Assembly: GCA_026770585.1 (NCBI GenBank)
Contig: MU646352.1
Location: forward strand, 320,554 to 347,713
Direction: 5' to 3'
Origin: Baffinella frigidus
Lineage: Eukaryota; Cryptophyceae; Cryptomonadales; Baffinellaceae
Length of the DNA: 27,160 bases
This document shows positions 10,134-18,364 of this stretch, piece after piece. Within the stretch, counting starts at the first letter, position 1, and every line of letters begins with the position of its first letter. The notes beneath the pieces are model-generated. The model searched no databases, was not told the origin of the DNA, and saw only the letters and a list, made by a program, of their open reading frames with translations. Both the position numbers and the translations under genes were made by a program.

Positions 10134-13100
10134 ATGGTTCGGCAAAGCCTTCTGACCCGCCTTGCGCTTCTCTCCCTCACGTGGCTCTTCGCCTTTGCCG
10201 TGGATCGCGCCGTTCCCTGGATCGAGCCGCTGGTGCCTCTCGACGGCCAAACGATCCCCGCCGAGCCGAGCGGAACCCATGTGACGCTGCTGGTCAGGTT
10301 GTCTGGACTTGAGGAGGGTGTGTACATGTACGAAGTGCACTACACCTCTGCAAGTGGCCCTCGCACCCGGATAGGAGGGGTGGAAATAAGTTTCACTGGT
10401 GATGACACAACCCCCGATTCAACGCACATGGAGATGCCCTTCGTGGCCAAGATACCCCACAAAGATCGTGGGCAGGTCTTGATTGAGTACGAGCTTTTCA
10501 GAAAAGACGAGGACTGGGAGGTGGTTGCCTTTCGAGGAATTACGATCAACGTGGCGCGCATTCCTCTGTTCCTGGGTGCGGGCGAGGACGGGGGTGTGGC
10601 GGAGGACGGGGGTACACCCTACCTCCTACACCATGCACCCTACACCCTAACCCCTAAACCCTACACCCCACACCGTAAACCCTAACCCCCCGACCCCTAA
10701 ATCCTAAACCCCAAACCCTAAACCCTAAAGCCTGAACCATGACCCCCAACCCCTCAACCCTAAACCCTAAACCCTAAAACCTAAACCCTCAACCTATCAC
10801 CCTACACCGTAAACCCTGAACACTTACCATAACCCCTAAACCCTAACCCCTTACCCCTAAACCCTAAACCCGAAGGGATGGCGATCGGGGAGTGCAGCAT
10901 GGTGGTGGACACCTCGCCTGACCTGCTCGCGACGCCGGAGAGGATGCTGGTCATTTCCTGCCCACATCCTACACCCTACACCCTACACCCTACACCCTAC
11001 ACCCTAAACCCTACACCCCAAACCCTAGACCCCAAACCCTAAACCCTAAACCCTAAACCCTAATCCCTAACCCCTAACCCCTAACCCCTCACCCCTAACC
11101 CCTAAACACAAAGGTGGGGTTCGTGGAGGGGCGGGGGGGGGCGGTGCTGCGCCTCGAGGATATGCTGGACAGGCACTGCCTGCTCTACCGTGCAGGTGGG
11201 TGTAGGGTTGAGGGTTTGGGTTTTAGGGTTCATGGTTGAGGTGAAGATTGCAGCTACCGCGCAGGTGCTGAGGCACGCAAATATCTTCCCTGGACCCTAC
11301 ACGAGATTGCAATATCAACCCTAGACCCTAAACCCTGAATCCTAGACCCTGAACCCTAAACCCTAGACCCTAAAACCTAGACCCTAGACCCTGAACCCTA
11401 AACCCTGAACCCTGAACCCTAGACCCTAAACCCTAGACCCTAAACCCTGAACCCTAAACCCTGAACCCTAAACTCTAGACCCTAAACCCTGAACCCTGCA
11501 CCCTGCACCCTGAACCCTGCACCGTGCACCCTGAACCCTGAACCCTGAACCCTGAGCCCTGAGCCCTGAACCCTGCGCAGTTGAGGTGTCGGAGTGCAGG
11601 AGAGAAAGTGGGGCCGATGCTCTCCGAAGTGGACCAAATCAAGGATATGGCTTGAGCCATTTTCCCGTGGTTCCCGAACCTCGTCCACTGGCTTCTGCGG
11701 CCCTCGTGTCCGCCGTGGGCCCAATTGACGTAAAACCCAAACTCGAACCCCAACCCCTGAACCCTGAACCTGAAACTTGAAACCTGAAACCTGAAACCTG
11801 AAACCTGAAACCTGAAACCTGAAACCTGAAACCTGAAACCTGAAACCCTGAACACTAAACCAGGCCGAAGCTACCACGCCGTGGTCAGCGTGGAACGAAA
11901 AGGTGTGCTCATCCTTCTCTCCTTCTCTGTGAACGAAGCAGAGCGTAGGAACGCGATGTTCTCTTGGTGTATGGTGGACAGAGACGGTTTCAGGCTGCTC
12001 TCGAAGCGCCTTACATTGCCGGGCACGCCTCACACACCCTGCCTAGAGAGAGAGTGTTTTTATTGAGTAACAAGTACGGATCTGGGGCTACACAAAATCT
12101 CAGACGAGCAAAGCTGTAGTCCGTACAGCATACCGACCCGGCGTGACCCCCCACCCCCCGAGCCCTCCTGAAACTAACGCCGGATTCCGGCGTCTTTGTA
12201 CCAGAAATAATAGAAGGACATAAGTGATTTGAGGTTGCTGTGAGGGCTGGTGGCTGCGTTGGGCAGGTCCTCGGGGGTGAAGAACCGTTGATGACACACC
12301 AAGCATGAATCCCTGCTGTGCTACGCCTGGAATCGCATTGCTGTGCTTTGGAGAGGAACCCCCCCCCCTCACCGAACCCGACTCCTAGCTCTGCCCCAGT
12401 TGTGTTGACAGATCGTTTTCACACCAAAGGTTGACGAATTTGTACAACCAAAAAGGGGGATAAACTTGCGGTGTCCTCATTCTGAGGAGACGAGATTAGC
12501 GCAGGCAGAGCTGCAATTCCCGTGCCATACCTTCGTTGCCCCCCGGACGCGTGACCAGACCGTTAACCCCACACTCTGAACCCTGAACCCTGAAAAAAAT
12601 GTCCCCAAAGACCGAACCCCTATTGGGGTCCTGAACCCTACACCTCACACCAGATCGTAGGGCTCGCAAACCAGATCGTTAACCCTACACCCTGATGAGA
12701 TTTGACCATCAATAACCCTACAACCAGATCGTAGGGATGATCGCCGCGAACAGGCAGTGCTTTGCGCGAAGCGAGGGCATGACTGATAGCATCGTAGTGC
12801 TTACTAATAGTGTTTTAGTGCTTACTAACAGTGGTGTAGATGTGACTGATGGTGTCGAAGTGCAAACTAATAGTGTTTTAGTGCTGACCAATAGCGTTGT
12901 AGTGCTGACTAATAGTGTTGTAGTGCTGACGGGGGCTGGCGCAGATCGTAAACCCTAACACCCAAACCCGATCGTAGGGCGTATCGTCCCGATCGACAGT
13001 ACTTCTGGCCGAGGGTTGACTTACCATCGAGGGGTTGACTTTTGCAGATAGTGGCATTGATCGTGGCGAATCGACTGTGCTTCGCGCGAAGCGAGAAAAT

Positions 13101-16100: not shown

Positions 16101-18364
16101 GCAGGCGCGAAACGGCGAGCAGATAGCGATGAGAGGACCACCAGCCCTCCGAGGCGGACCAAATCGAGGCTGTAGCATGCGCCAACTCCTCGGGCGGCAC
16201 CTTCGAAAACGAATGTGCCACCCGAGGAAATGGCTCACAACAATTGTCGATTGGGTCCGCCTTGCAGGACTGGTGGGAGTGTCTCGACTCCTGTCATCGC
16301 CCTCTATCACATCACGTGGTCAGGTATTCCACAAAAACGCAGCTTACGTCGAGCGATGGCAGACGATGAGGACCGAACCGTAGGAGGGGAGCTAAAGTGG
16401 ACACGTCCACTTTACCTACCCGCAGGCGCGAACCGGCGAGCAGTAACGTGACCGTTCTCCAGTAACGTGACCAATATTGGCAGGCGCAAAACGGCGAGCA
16501 GATGGCGATCCAGCACTACCTTCTCGAGACCTTCTCTCAGCATGCCGTCGGAACCTATCAAGGTCACCTGCACCCGAAAATTATTTCCACACAACCATCA
16601 ATTAATTGCTTTTGGTCAAGGAAAATTTCGACACGATTTGCTCATAAACGTAATAGTAGAGCGTCTGTGTTGTAAATTTCGTTGCCCCGACCGCAAATTT
16701 TATTAATACTTGTGTGGACACGAAACTCCTTTCAAGGTCACCTGACCCCCCTTTAGCACTTCCTTCTCAAGACCTTCTCGCAGCATGGCGTCTGCACCTA
16801 TCACGGTGCCCTGAACCCCCCTCCACCAACCCTCACGGGCTGAGCAAATCGATGATTTTCGATTTTCGATTTCAAGGCAAAATGGCTCCATGGACGCTGG
16901 AATCCGGCGGCCGCCCAGGGACATACGTGACCTCAACTTCGACGATTTGCATAGGATGTGAGGGTTGGTGGTTCAGCACTACCTTTTCGAGACCTTTTTG
17001 CAGCATGGCGTCGGGACCTATCACGGTCACCTAAACCCTAACCCCTATCTCCTAAACCCTAAACCCTGAACCCTAAACCTCACACCTTCACTCTGACGTG
17101 GACCACACAGCGAGCTACCAAGGGAATCTATGGCCGATGCGTCAGGACCGACCGTCAGGACGTTCTCAGGAACAACCCTATGTCCCTAGGAATAACCCCG
17201 TGTCCCGACTCACTTTTTTTTCAAGAGTGGGCATCTCACTTGAAGGGGACTGCAGGGGATTTCGGCGTAACGTCGTCCCGTCGGAACGTGTACTGGGCGG
17301 CCACGCTAGCCAACAGTGCACACGTGGTCTAGTTTTGGTGAATCCCGAGTGCAGGGGGGTGTGGGTAGACTTGGTCGCGTCAGAACGTGTGATGTGAGCC
17401 CGCTCCCGAATGGTCGATGGTCCCTCAGGATGGAGACAGATGCTGTCGGGGAGTGCGGTGCGGCTTTCTCCAAGAGAAACGTGTGCTGGCGGGCCGCGTT
17501 TGCCAACGCCGCTCCTGTATCATGTCCCTAGGAATAACCCTGGGTCCCTCCTGCAGGAGAGTGTGGGCAGGCTTGGTCTCGCCGGAACGTGTGCTGGGTG
17601 CCCGCGTTTTCAAACGGCGCGAGCGTGCTCTGATTCTGGTATGTCCCAGGTGTAGGGGAGTGCGGGCAGGCGTCGTTTGGGAGAAATGTCTGCTGGGTGG
17701 GCGCGCTAGCCACCGGCACACCGTTACGATACCCTAGGATACGGGATACGGAAAGTTAGGATATCCCATCCTGGGAATAACCCTTTGTCCATACGAATAA
17801 CCCCATATCATCAAGTGCAGGAGAGTGCGGGCAGGCTTCCTCTCGGAGAAATGTTTGCTGGATGGCCGCACTAGCCAACGGCGCGAGAGTAAACCCTAAA
17901 CCCTAAACCCTAAACCCTAAACCCTAAACCCTAAACCCTAAACCCTAAACCCTAAACCCTAAACCCTAAACCCTAAACCCTAAACCCCAAACCCTGAACC
18001 CTGAACCGTAAACCCTAAACCCTAAACCCTCAACCCTAAACCCTAAACCCTGATCCCTGAACCCGAAACCCTAAACCCTAAACCCTAAACCCTAAACCCT
18101 AAACACTGAACACTAAACTCTAACCCTGAACCCTAAACCCCAAGCCCCAAACCCCAAACCCTCAACCATACACCCTAAACCCTAAACCCCAAACCCCAAA
18201 CCCCAAACCCCAAACCCTAAACCCTAAACCCTAACCAAGGTGCCGCACCCGTCCGTCCTGAACATCTCTGTCTCCAACCGCTGGTGCCGTCCGGACGAGG
18301 TCTCTCTCTTTCTCTCTATCTCTCTCTCTTGCTCTCTCTCTTTTGTTCTCTCTCTCTCTCCCCC

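What the first reader, a model, noticed from the sequence alone, without database searches (positions are those of the whole stretch)
12737..17888. Serial reiteration of individual exons in one gene
In gene B, exons 5, 7, 8, 9, 10 and 11 each exist in 2 to 6 tandem copies, while the N-terminal exons 1-4 are single. Usually one copy is intact and the rest carry stops, frame slips or missing ends. The duplicated unit is about one exon plus intron, not the whole gene. It could be a nursery of mutually exclusive exons, or a birth-and-death process driven by repeat-rich introns that recombine exon by exon. I know of no standard description of this pattern in a glycosyltransferase.
Basis: partly seen in the sequence, partly recalled or inferred. 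Interest (0 to 1): 0.88.

Follow-up and report, generated by a model that had tools for sequence, protein, structure and literature searches.

The report
Serially duplicated exons in algal genes
In an Arctic single-celled alga (a cryptophyte), single exons of this gene have been copied side by side again and again; some other genes there show the same, and some spare copies look as if natural selection has kept their protein code, so they may have been swappable gene parts rather than junk.

Summary
The window is from the cryptophyte Baffinella (gene A = T484DRAFT_1932625). In gene B the first five exons are single; six later exons have 1-5 extra same-strand copies each. Corrections: B runs on to 19894; many copies are exon fragments; exon B12 keeps three open copies with AG and GT sites. 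The head-to-head paralogue A and gene C also carry copies, and so do 3 of 9 readable loci examined elsewhere: a myosin gene, a kinase gene and an unidentified locus.

Best reading: birth-and-death of exon-sized pieces by local DNA tandem duplication, mostly independent in paralogues. The telomere-like repeat introns do not hold the copies: 0 of 13, against 9 of 18 others (length confounds). The surprise is that spare copies do not look neutral: pooled omega 0.24 over 13 frame-intact pairs, reached by 0 of 200 dead-from-birth simulations in each of three settings. Yet many copies lack a splice site, fragments look as constrained as whole copies, and A's gene model uses one copy per exon. Mutually exclusive use today is possible for B12 but unproven without cDNA. 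A new variant of a known kind, tandem exon duplication.

The parts
10134..11902 (+). Gene B exons B1-B5 (10134-10611, 10876-10949, 11114-11195, 11581-11729, 11864-11902): single copy
   Evidence: GT-AG model in frame; no extra exon copies counted
13048..13127 (+).
12729..12784 (+). B6 spare c1 (5' part, acceptor AG present)
13431..13474 (+). B7 'THVLAGRPGYFLK', single
13557..13604 (+).
13765..13791 (+). B8 spare fragment with donor GT (weak hit)
14517..14628 (+).
14080..14131 (+). B9 spare c1 (5' half, two stops)
15076..15226 (+). Fused spare: B9 3' half joined in frame to B10-c2, without the B9-B10 intron; acceptor AG off by 1 nt
14870..14961 (+).
15354..15895 (+). B10 spares c3 15354-15418 (stop), c4 15568-15632, c5 15738-15770, c6 15863-15895: 5'-truncated, GT kept
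16484..16562 (+).
16105..16142 (+). B11 spare c0 (5' end with acceptor)
16755..17025 (+). B11 spares c2 16755-16805 (stop) and c3 16966-17025: 3' parts with GT, no acceptor
17821..17888 (+).
17256..17323 (+). B12 spare c1: AG, GT, open 68-nt frame; both conserved cysteines replaced
17355..17417 (+). B12 spare c2: two stops, shortened
17440..17516 (+). B12 spare c3: open frame; homologous AG lost, an upstream AG (gacag) keeps the frame (+9 nt)
17557..17624 (+). B12 spare c4: AG, GT, open 68-nt frame, both cysteines kept
17656..17722 (+). B12 spare c5: open frame, donor displaced by 1 nt (67 nt)
18240..19894 (+). Gene B exons B13 (18240-18299), B14 (18503-18558), B15 (19082-19138), B16 (19738-19894, ends TAA); partial B15 copy near 18945
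295..8881 (-). Gene A (P0001, T484DRAFT_1932625; residues 1-538 of 557 found here), head-to-head paralogue; spares of A3 (7899-7864, 7996-7951), A8 (5704-5650, 6137-6081), A11 (3774-3739), A13 (2445-2383), A14 (2180-2119)
21958..23705 (+). Gene C (Cid1/TUTase-like) internal tandem duplication: 21958-22241 with 22999-23282 (84.6%), 22345-22483 with 23583-23705 (72.9%)

Best explanation
Gene B is one case of a wider process in Baffinella: exon-sized pieces, often with some intron, are duplicated locally at the DNA level (shown for several units). In the B12 array the first copy seems to keep the old upstream flank and the last the old downstream flank (suggested by paralogue E). Copies then diverge, are truncated and die (all stages seen; the order is inferred). 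One copy per position suffices for the protein (shown for the gene model of A). Because B9-B12 are not multiples of three, productive splicing can take only one copy of each. While a spare keeps its splice sites it is interchangeable with, or alternative to, the main exon and so is under protein-level selection (inferred from low omega); later it loses a splice site or its frame and becomes a fossil. B12 is the array nearest to working mutually exclusive exons (main copy, c1, c4; possibly c3).
For: Copies and controls. Units that carry intron: 14929-15074 vs 15863-16001 (80%), 15162-15420 vs 15354-15634 (78%), 17523-17626 vs 17786-17890 (74%). Flank test: E's single exon 12 has an upstream flank matching B12-c1 (17 of 20 nt; score 28, maximum of 500 shuffles 25; the other 5 copies are below their 99% level), while its heptad intron stands downstream as at the main B12 copy. 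Separate A and B arrays. Constraint: my own codon-model likelihood on main, c1, c3, c4, c5 gave omega 0.087 on the spare tips, LRT 20.5 against 1. Pooled omega over 11 pairs 0.24, bootstrap 0.16-0.33; over 13 pairs 0.24, 0.17-0.33, with 125 substitutions at codon positions 29/25/71. Dead-from-birth nulls reach the observed value in 0 of 200 runs in each of three settings, in 0, 1 and 0 of 150, and for 13 pairs in 0 of 200 in each of three settings. With a spare omega of 0.5, 40 of 200 runs reach it; with 0.2, 190 of 200. Least favourable choice of copies: 0.29. Other genes: myosin L041, kinase L046, L028.
Against: Fragments that cannot now be exons show the same low omega (0.25) as complete copies (0.23), so either constraint predates truncation or the measure is biased. 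The pairs were chosen for intact frames; B11-c2, with a stop, gives 1.06-1.14. The data are small: 125 substitutions in 13 pairs, 22 codons for B12; B12-c2 was left out of the likelihood because of its stops, and the optimiser was imprecise (the two-class fit ended 0.18 log units below the one-class fit). No transcript shows any spare being used. Gene B was not found in the protein collection and its B6-B7 junction shows no GT, so it could be dying. No tandem duplicate was found in 5 of 9 other loci: L040, L042, L043, L044, L045.
Confidence: 0.6

Rival explanations
1. Dead on arrival: the copies are neutral debris of a genome prone to short tandem duplications; low omega is chance, ascertainment or mutation bias.
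For: Many copies lack a splice site, are truncated or carry stops; fragments show the same omega as complete copies; intron-only stretches are duplicated too (13793-13963 vs 14187-14357, 88.9%).
Against: Dead-from-birth simulations with stops rejected reach the observed pooled omega in 0 of 200 (three settings), 0, 1, 0 of 150 and 0 of 200 (three settings); the B12 likelihood rejects omega 1 for spares.
Confidence: 0.28
2. Active mutually exclusive exons now: B12 (and perhaps myosin and kinase exons) are alternatives chosen one at a time, giving protein variants.
For: B12 main copy, c1 and c4 have AG, GT and the same 68-nt length and phase; double inclusion would break the frame; four of the five gaps between neighbouring copies are only 31-40 nt; low omega; an intron element of 36 nt lies upstream of c1, c4 and the main copy (family D19).
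Against: c1 lost both conserved cysteines; c3 and c5 each lost one splice site; c2 has stops; gene A's annotated model uses one copy per exon; no transcript data.
Confidence: 0.25
3. RNA-mediated copying: fragments of spliced mRNA were reverse-transcribed and inserted in nearby introns.
For: B9-c2 and B10-c2 are fused in frame without the 241-nt intron.
Against: Other copies carry intron sequence and GT or AG sites absent from mRNA. Intron positions differ among paralogues (D lacks several introns), so gain of the B9-B10 intron after duplication also explains the fusion.
Confidence: 0.08
4. Assembly or chimera artefact.
For: A 150-N gap lies in the B6-B7 intron; only one assembly was seen.
Against: Main and spare copies in B differ by 6-37%; arrays recur in contigs C20 and C18, though the kinase copies differ by only 3-15%.
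Confidence: 0.02

Closest known systems
Tandem exon duplication in animals (PMC9013439, passages read, which cites a 2002 study: about 10% of animal genes)
   Same: Short coding exons duplicated in tandem within a gene, spare copies in introns, some unannotated.
   Different: Here several different exons of one gene are reiterated, up to six copies, many fragmentary, in a single-celled cryptophyte; gene A, gene C, a myosin and a kinase show it too.
Mutually exclusive exon clusters such as Dscam or insect Mhc (search listing; details recalled)
   Same: B12: adjacent homologous exons of equal length and phase, where only one inclusion keeps the frame.
   Different: No evidence of regulated choice; three of the six B12 copies are damaged; no docking or selector structure was tested.
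Introner-type intron gain (recalled; listing)
   Same: Paralogue-specific introns suggest recent intron gain.
   Different: The filler is telomere-like heptads, mostly C-rich on the sense strand; and these introns do not hold the exon copies.

Membership tests
Tandem exon duplication | Homologous exon copies adjacent, same strand, within one gene | tested here: met
Tandem exon duplication | Copies above chance | tested here: met
   26 tandem hits in B, 0 in each of 6 shuffled controls, 3 of A and 3 of B
Mutually exclusive exons | At least two copies with both splice sites and open frame in the same phase | tested here: met
   B12 main copy, c1, c4 only; not met for the spares of B6 and B8-B11 as they stand
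Mutually exclusive exons | Each mRNA carries exactly one of the copies, and different copies are used | not testable with these tools
   No transcript data; A's gene model uses one copy per exon
Mutually exclusive exons | Selection on alternative copies | tested here: inconclusive
   omega 0.087 on B12 spare tips, 0.24 pooled, but fragments give the same value
Glycosyltransferase (GT34-like or PF03407) | Match above the curated Pfam score | tested here: not met
   B draft: PF05637 16.7 bits against 23, PF03407 13 against 22; P0001: no family at E up to 0.1; no PDB sequence match; model pLDDT 32.5. A DMDG motif is present, so the label stays tentative

The most novel reading that the evidence does not exclude
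Baffinella keeps arrays of interchangeable exons in many genes as a standing system: spare exons are spliced in place of the main one (mutually exclusive or stochastic), are held by selection, and are continually renewed by local duplication, giving a protist, Dscam-like exon turnover spread over ordinary genes.
Probability: 0.2. Interest if true: 0.88.

Novelty: new variant of a known kind. Interest (0 to 1): 0.62.

Why it matters
Tandem exon duplication is described mainly in animals (recalled, and PMC9013439 passages). A cryptophyte in which several exons of one gene, and exons of unrelated genes, are reiterated independently and often fragmentarily would be a natural laboratory for how alternative exons are born. 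It also warns that gene models in such genomes silently choose one copy. If spare copies are truly under selection, the step from duplicate exon to alternative exon becomes directly testable in one genome.

Tried and rejected
Looked for exon copies in the telomere-like heptad introns as the driver: none there. Tried a genome sample to measure prevalence: 9 of 10 stretches read N, so prevalence is unknown. Family tables for myosin and kinase turned out blind to nearby copies: they list one piece where L046 holds three, and miss the L041 copies, so absence there means nothing. L044 gave two weak protein-level self-hits that I judged low-complexity. Tandem hits in the stretches of paralogues D and E (10 and 6) lie outside their recognised exons and were not assessed for coding. 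Structure prediction for P0001 from 3 sequences failed (pLDDT 32.5), so no fold search was made. PDB sequence search gave nothing; tRNA and Rfam scans gave nothing. CpG hypermutation as the cause of low omega: not enough. My own joined model of gene A had off-by-one errors, so its exon lengths are not used except A8, which follows from P0001. Literature: searches listed no paper on exon reiteration or heptad introns in cryptophytes that I could recognise from title and abstract start; only PMC9756366 and PMC9013439 were opened, as passages, and 'introns' occurs 0 times in the main text of the first.
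Full report
WHERE IT IS. The window lies in contig C50 of a 382-Mb genome (contig 1.13 Mb). Searching the draft protein of gene B returned one protein, P0001 = T484DRAFT_1932625 of Baffinella frigidus, a cryptophyte. Residues 1-538 of its 557 map exon by exon onto the minus strand of the window: it is gene A, the head-to-head paralogue of B (61% identity over 474 aligned columns). Published figures for Baffinella sp. CCMP2293 (534.5 Mbp, GC 53.9%, 41% repeats; PMC9756366, passages read) are compatible. Gene B was not among the proteins scored in that search. 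Gene C (from about 21.7 kb) is a Cid1/TUTase-like enzyme, above two Pfam cut-offs. The label glycosyltransferase for A and B is tentative: Pfam matches of B are below cut-off, P0001 has none at E up to 0.1, no PDB match, structure model unusable.

THE OBSERVATION. I built a GT-AG model of B with 16 exons, 10134-19894. Two caveats: the 3' end of B6 shows no GT before a heptad block and a 150-N gap, and B15 must end at 19138, one base later than in my model, for the frame to hold. Searching every exon of A and B against the masked sense strands gave extra copies in B for B6 (1), B8 (1, weak), B9 (2), B10 (5), B11 (3), B12 (4), and in A for A3 (2), A8 (2), A11 (1), A13 (1), A14 (1), each above the best of 20 shuffles. 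A fifth B12 spare with stops and a small A14 fragment were seen by tblastn, a B15 fragment in an alignment. Dropped hits are named in the observation check.

ANATOMY OF THE COPIES. Many spares keep one true exon edge and lack the other: B10-c3 to c6 and B11-c2, c3 keep the donor; B6-c1, B9-c1, A8-c1 and A3-c2 keep the acceptor. B9-c2 and B10-c2 are fused in frame with no intron, either because that intron was gained later in the main copy or because the copy went through RNA. B12 is different: six copies in 633 nt, gaps of 31, 31, 40, 31 and 98 nt; the main copy, c1 and c4 have AG, GT and an open 68-nt frame; c3 lost its AG but has another that keeps the frame; c5's donor is displaced by one nt; c2 has stops. 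B9 (112), B10 (92), B11 (79) and B12 (68) are not multiples of three, B8 and A8 are, so for the former only exclusive use would give the protein. Residues invariant between P0001 and two distant metagenome relatives include two cysteines in this exon (3 sequences): c3, c4 and c5 keep both, c1 lost both.

HOW THEY AROSE. Units often include intron, so DNA-level duplication is the simplest route. Two paralogues elsewhere help: D on C2 and E on C1183, each with one exon 12. A14 and its spare group together (94) and with D (100), apart from all B12 copies; the support inside the B group is low (39-68) and E falls among B's copies. For exon 11/13 the picture is alike: A13 with its spare 75, with D 100. 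For A8/B6 it is mixed: B6's upstream intron resembles that of the spare A8-c1 (13011-13102 vs 5740-5650, 80%) while its 3' half matches the main A8 copy, which suggests an older array and recombination between copies. E's upstream flank resembles only B12-c1 among six copies (17 of 20 nt, above 500 shuffles), while its downstream heptad intron is at the position of the main B12 copy: what tandem duplication of one ancestral exon predicts. This flank match is short.

NOT JUST THIS GENE. In gene C a multi-exon segment is duplicated (84.6% over 285 nt and 72.9% over 140 nt). Outside the window I examined nine loci with readable sequence (L028, L039-L046). Three had in-frame exon-like copies. L041 holds a myosin-head exon (PF00063) and four reiterated exons or exon parts at 86-89%; the three short pieces have no Pfam match of their own, so their place in the myosin gene rests on position and a recalled motif. 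L046, at a kinase match, has three copies of [28 protein letters not shown], 85-97% identical in DNA over the aligned stretches; the second and third lack a clear acceptor. L028 is an unidentified locus with one frame-conserved pair and one pair whose frames differ. L039 had duplicates without a clear frame; L040, L042, L043, L044 and L045 had no tandem duplicate. L039-L041 and L044-L046 were chosen because they held gene matches (L044-L046 are 3 of 79 kinase matches), so this is not a random estimate; of ten arbitrary 5-kb stretches nine were all N.

ARE THE SPARES NEUTRAL? Pairwise omega among five B12 copies was 0.07-0.49 in the nine of ten pairs where it is defined. My own codon-model likelihood on these five gave 0.087 on the spare tips, against 1: LRT 20.5. 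Eleven frame-intact pairs, one per array (seven from the window, three myosin, one L028), pooled to 0.24, bootstrap 0.16-0.33. An A14 pair had been missed there through a wrong search peptide, and the kinase array was found later; with both, 13 pairs give 0.24, 0.17-0.33. Simulations in which the spare is neutral from birth reached the 11-pair value in 0 of 200 runs in three settings and in 0, 1 and 0 of 150 in three others, two of them with CpG hypermutation, and the 13-pair value in 0 of 200 in three settings. Spares simulated at omega 0.5 reach it in 40 of 200 runs, at 0.2 in 190 of 200. The least favourable choice of copies gives 0.29. Against this: fragments (0.25) are as constrained as complete copies (0.23), B11-c2 looks neutral, and the sample is small and selected for intact frames. 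My inference is that many spares served as interchangeable exons for a time and lost a splice site later.

THE INTRONS. Of 31 introns of A and B, 13 are built largely of telomere-like heptads (12 at 0.82-1.00 and B6-B7 at 0.56 with its N gap), C-rich on the sense strand (283 against 10 heptads over all introns). None of these 13 holds an exon copy; 9 of the 18 others do (P = 0.0024). Copy-bearing introns are longer (523-1522 nt against at most 399), so this does not show that heptads prevent copying, but it removes the idea that they drive it. Several heptad introns differ in position between A and B, and D has no intron at either place around exons 14/15, which suggests recent intron gain.

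VERDICT. The finding is real, not gene-specific, and belongs to tandem exon duplication, in an unusually dense and fragmentary form and in a lineage for which my literature searches listed no such report. Whether any spare exon is expressed is the open question.

Noticed in passing
introns of genes A, B, C; e.g. 10612-10875, 17889-18239, 6557-6266: Many introns consist almost wholly of telomere-like heptads (CCCTAAA and variants), C-rich on the sense strand in A and B (283:10); several are paralogue-specific and absent from paralogue D, suggesting intron birth from telomeric repeats. The strand bias is not general: D's stretch has 46:36 and L040 30:34.
   Followed up: partly
13119-13127 and 13431-13437: The heptad block between B6 and B7 is flanked by a 7-nt direct repeat GCACCAC, like a target-site duplication, with no GT donor visible at its left edge.
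   Followed up: partly
10876-10949 and 11114-11195 against 7335-7262 and 7123-7042: These two exons are 98-99% identical between A and B, while exon 1 is 52% and the preceding A3/B1 stretch 78%: probably recent gene conversion between the head-to-head paralogues.
   Followed up: no
10011-10058: A perfect 48-nt palindrome about 75 nt upstream of gene B's start codon.
   Followed up: no
13618-13762, 6879-7023, 16138-16276, 20196-20316, 15719-15899: MITE-like inverted-repeat elements in and between the genes; one type abuts the truncated B10 spares c5 and c6.
   Followed up: partly
L010 (C2:1450501-1457500), L011 (C1183:17701-27700): Paralogue D has exons fused that are split in A and B; paralogue E shares B's heptad intron but has a 4-nt gap in exon 12 and looks like a decaying gene.
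   Followed up: partly
8937-9720: A long CCGGCCGGGCACCCGG-type GC-rich repeat field between the two gene starts.
   Followed up: no
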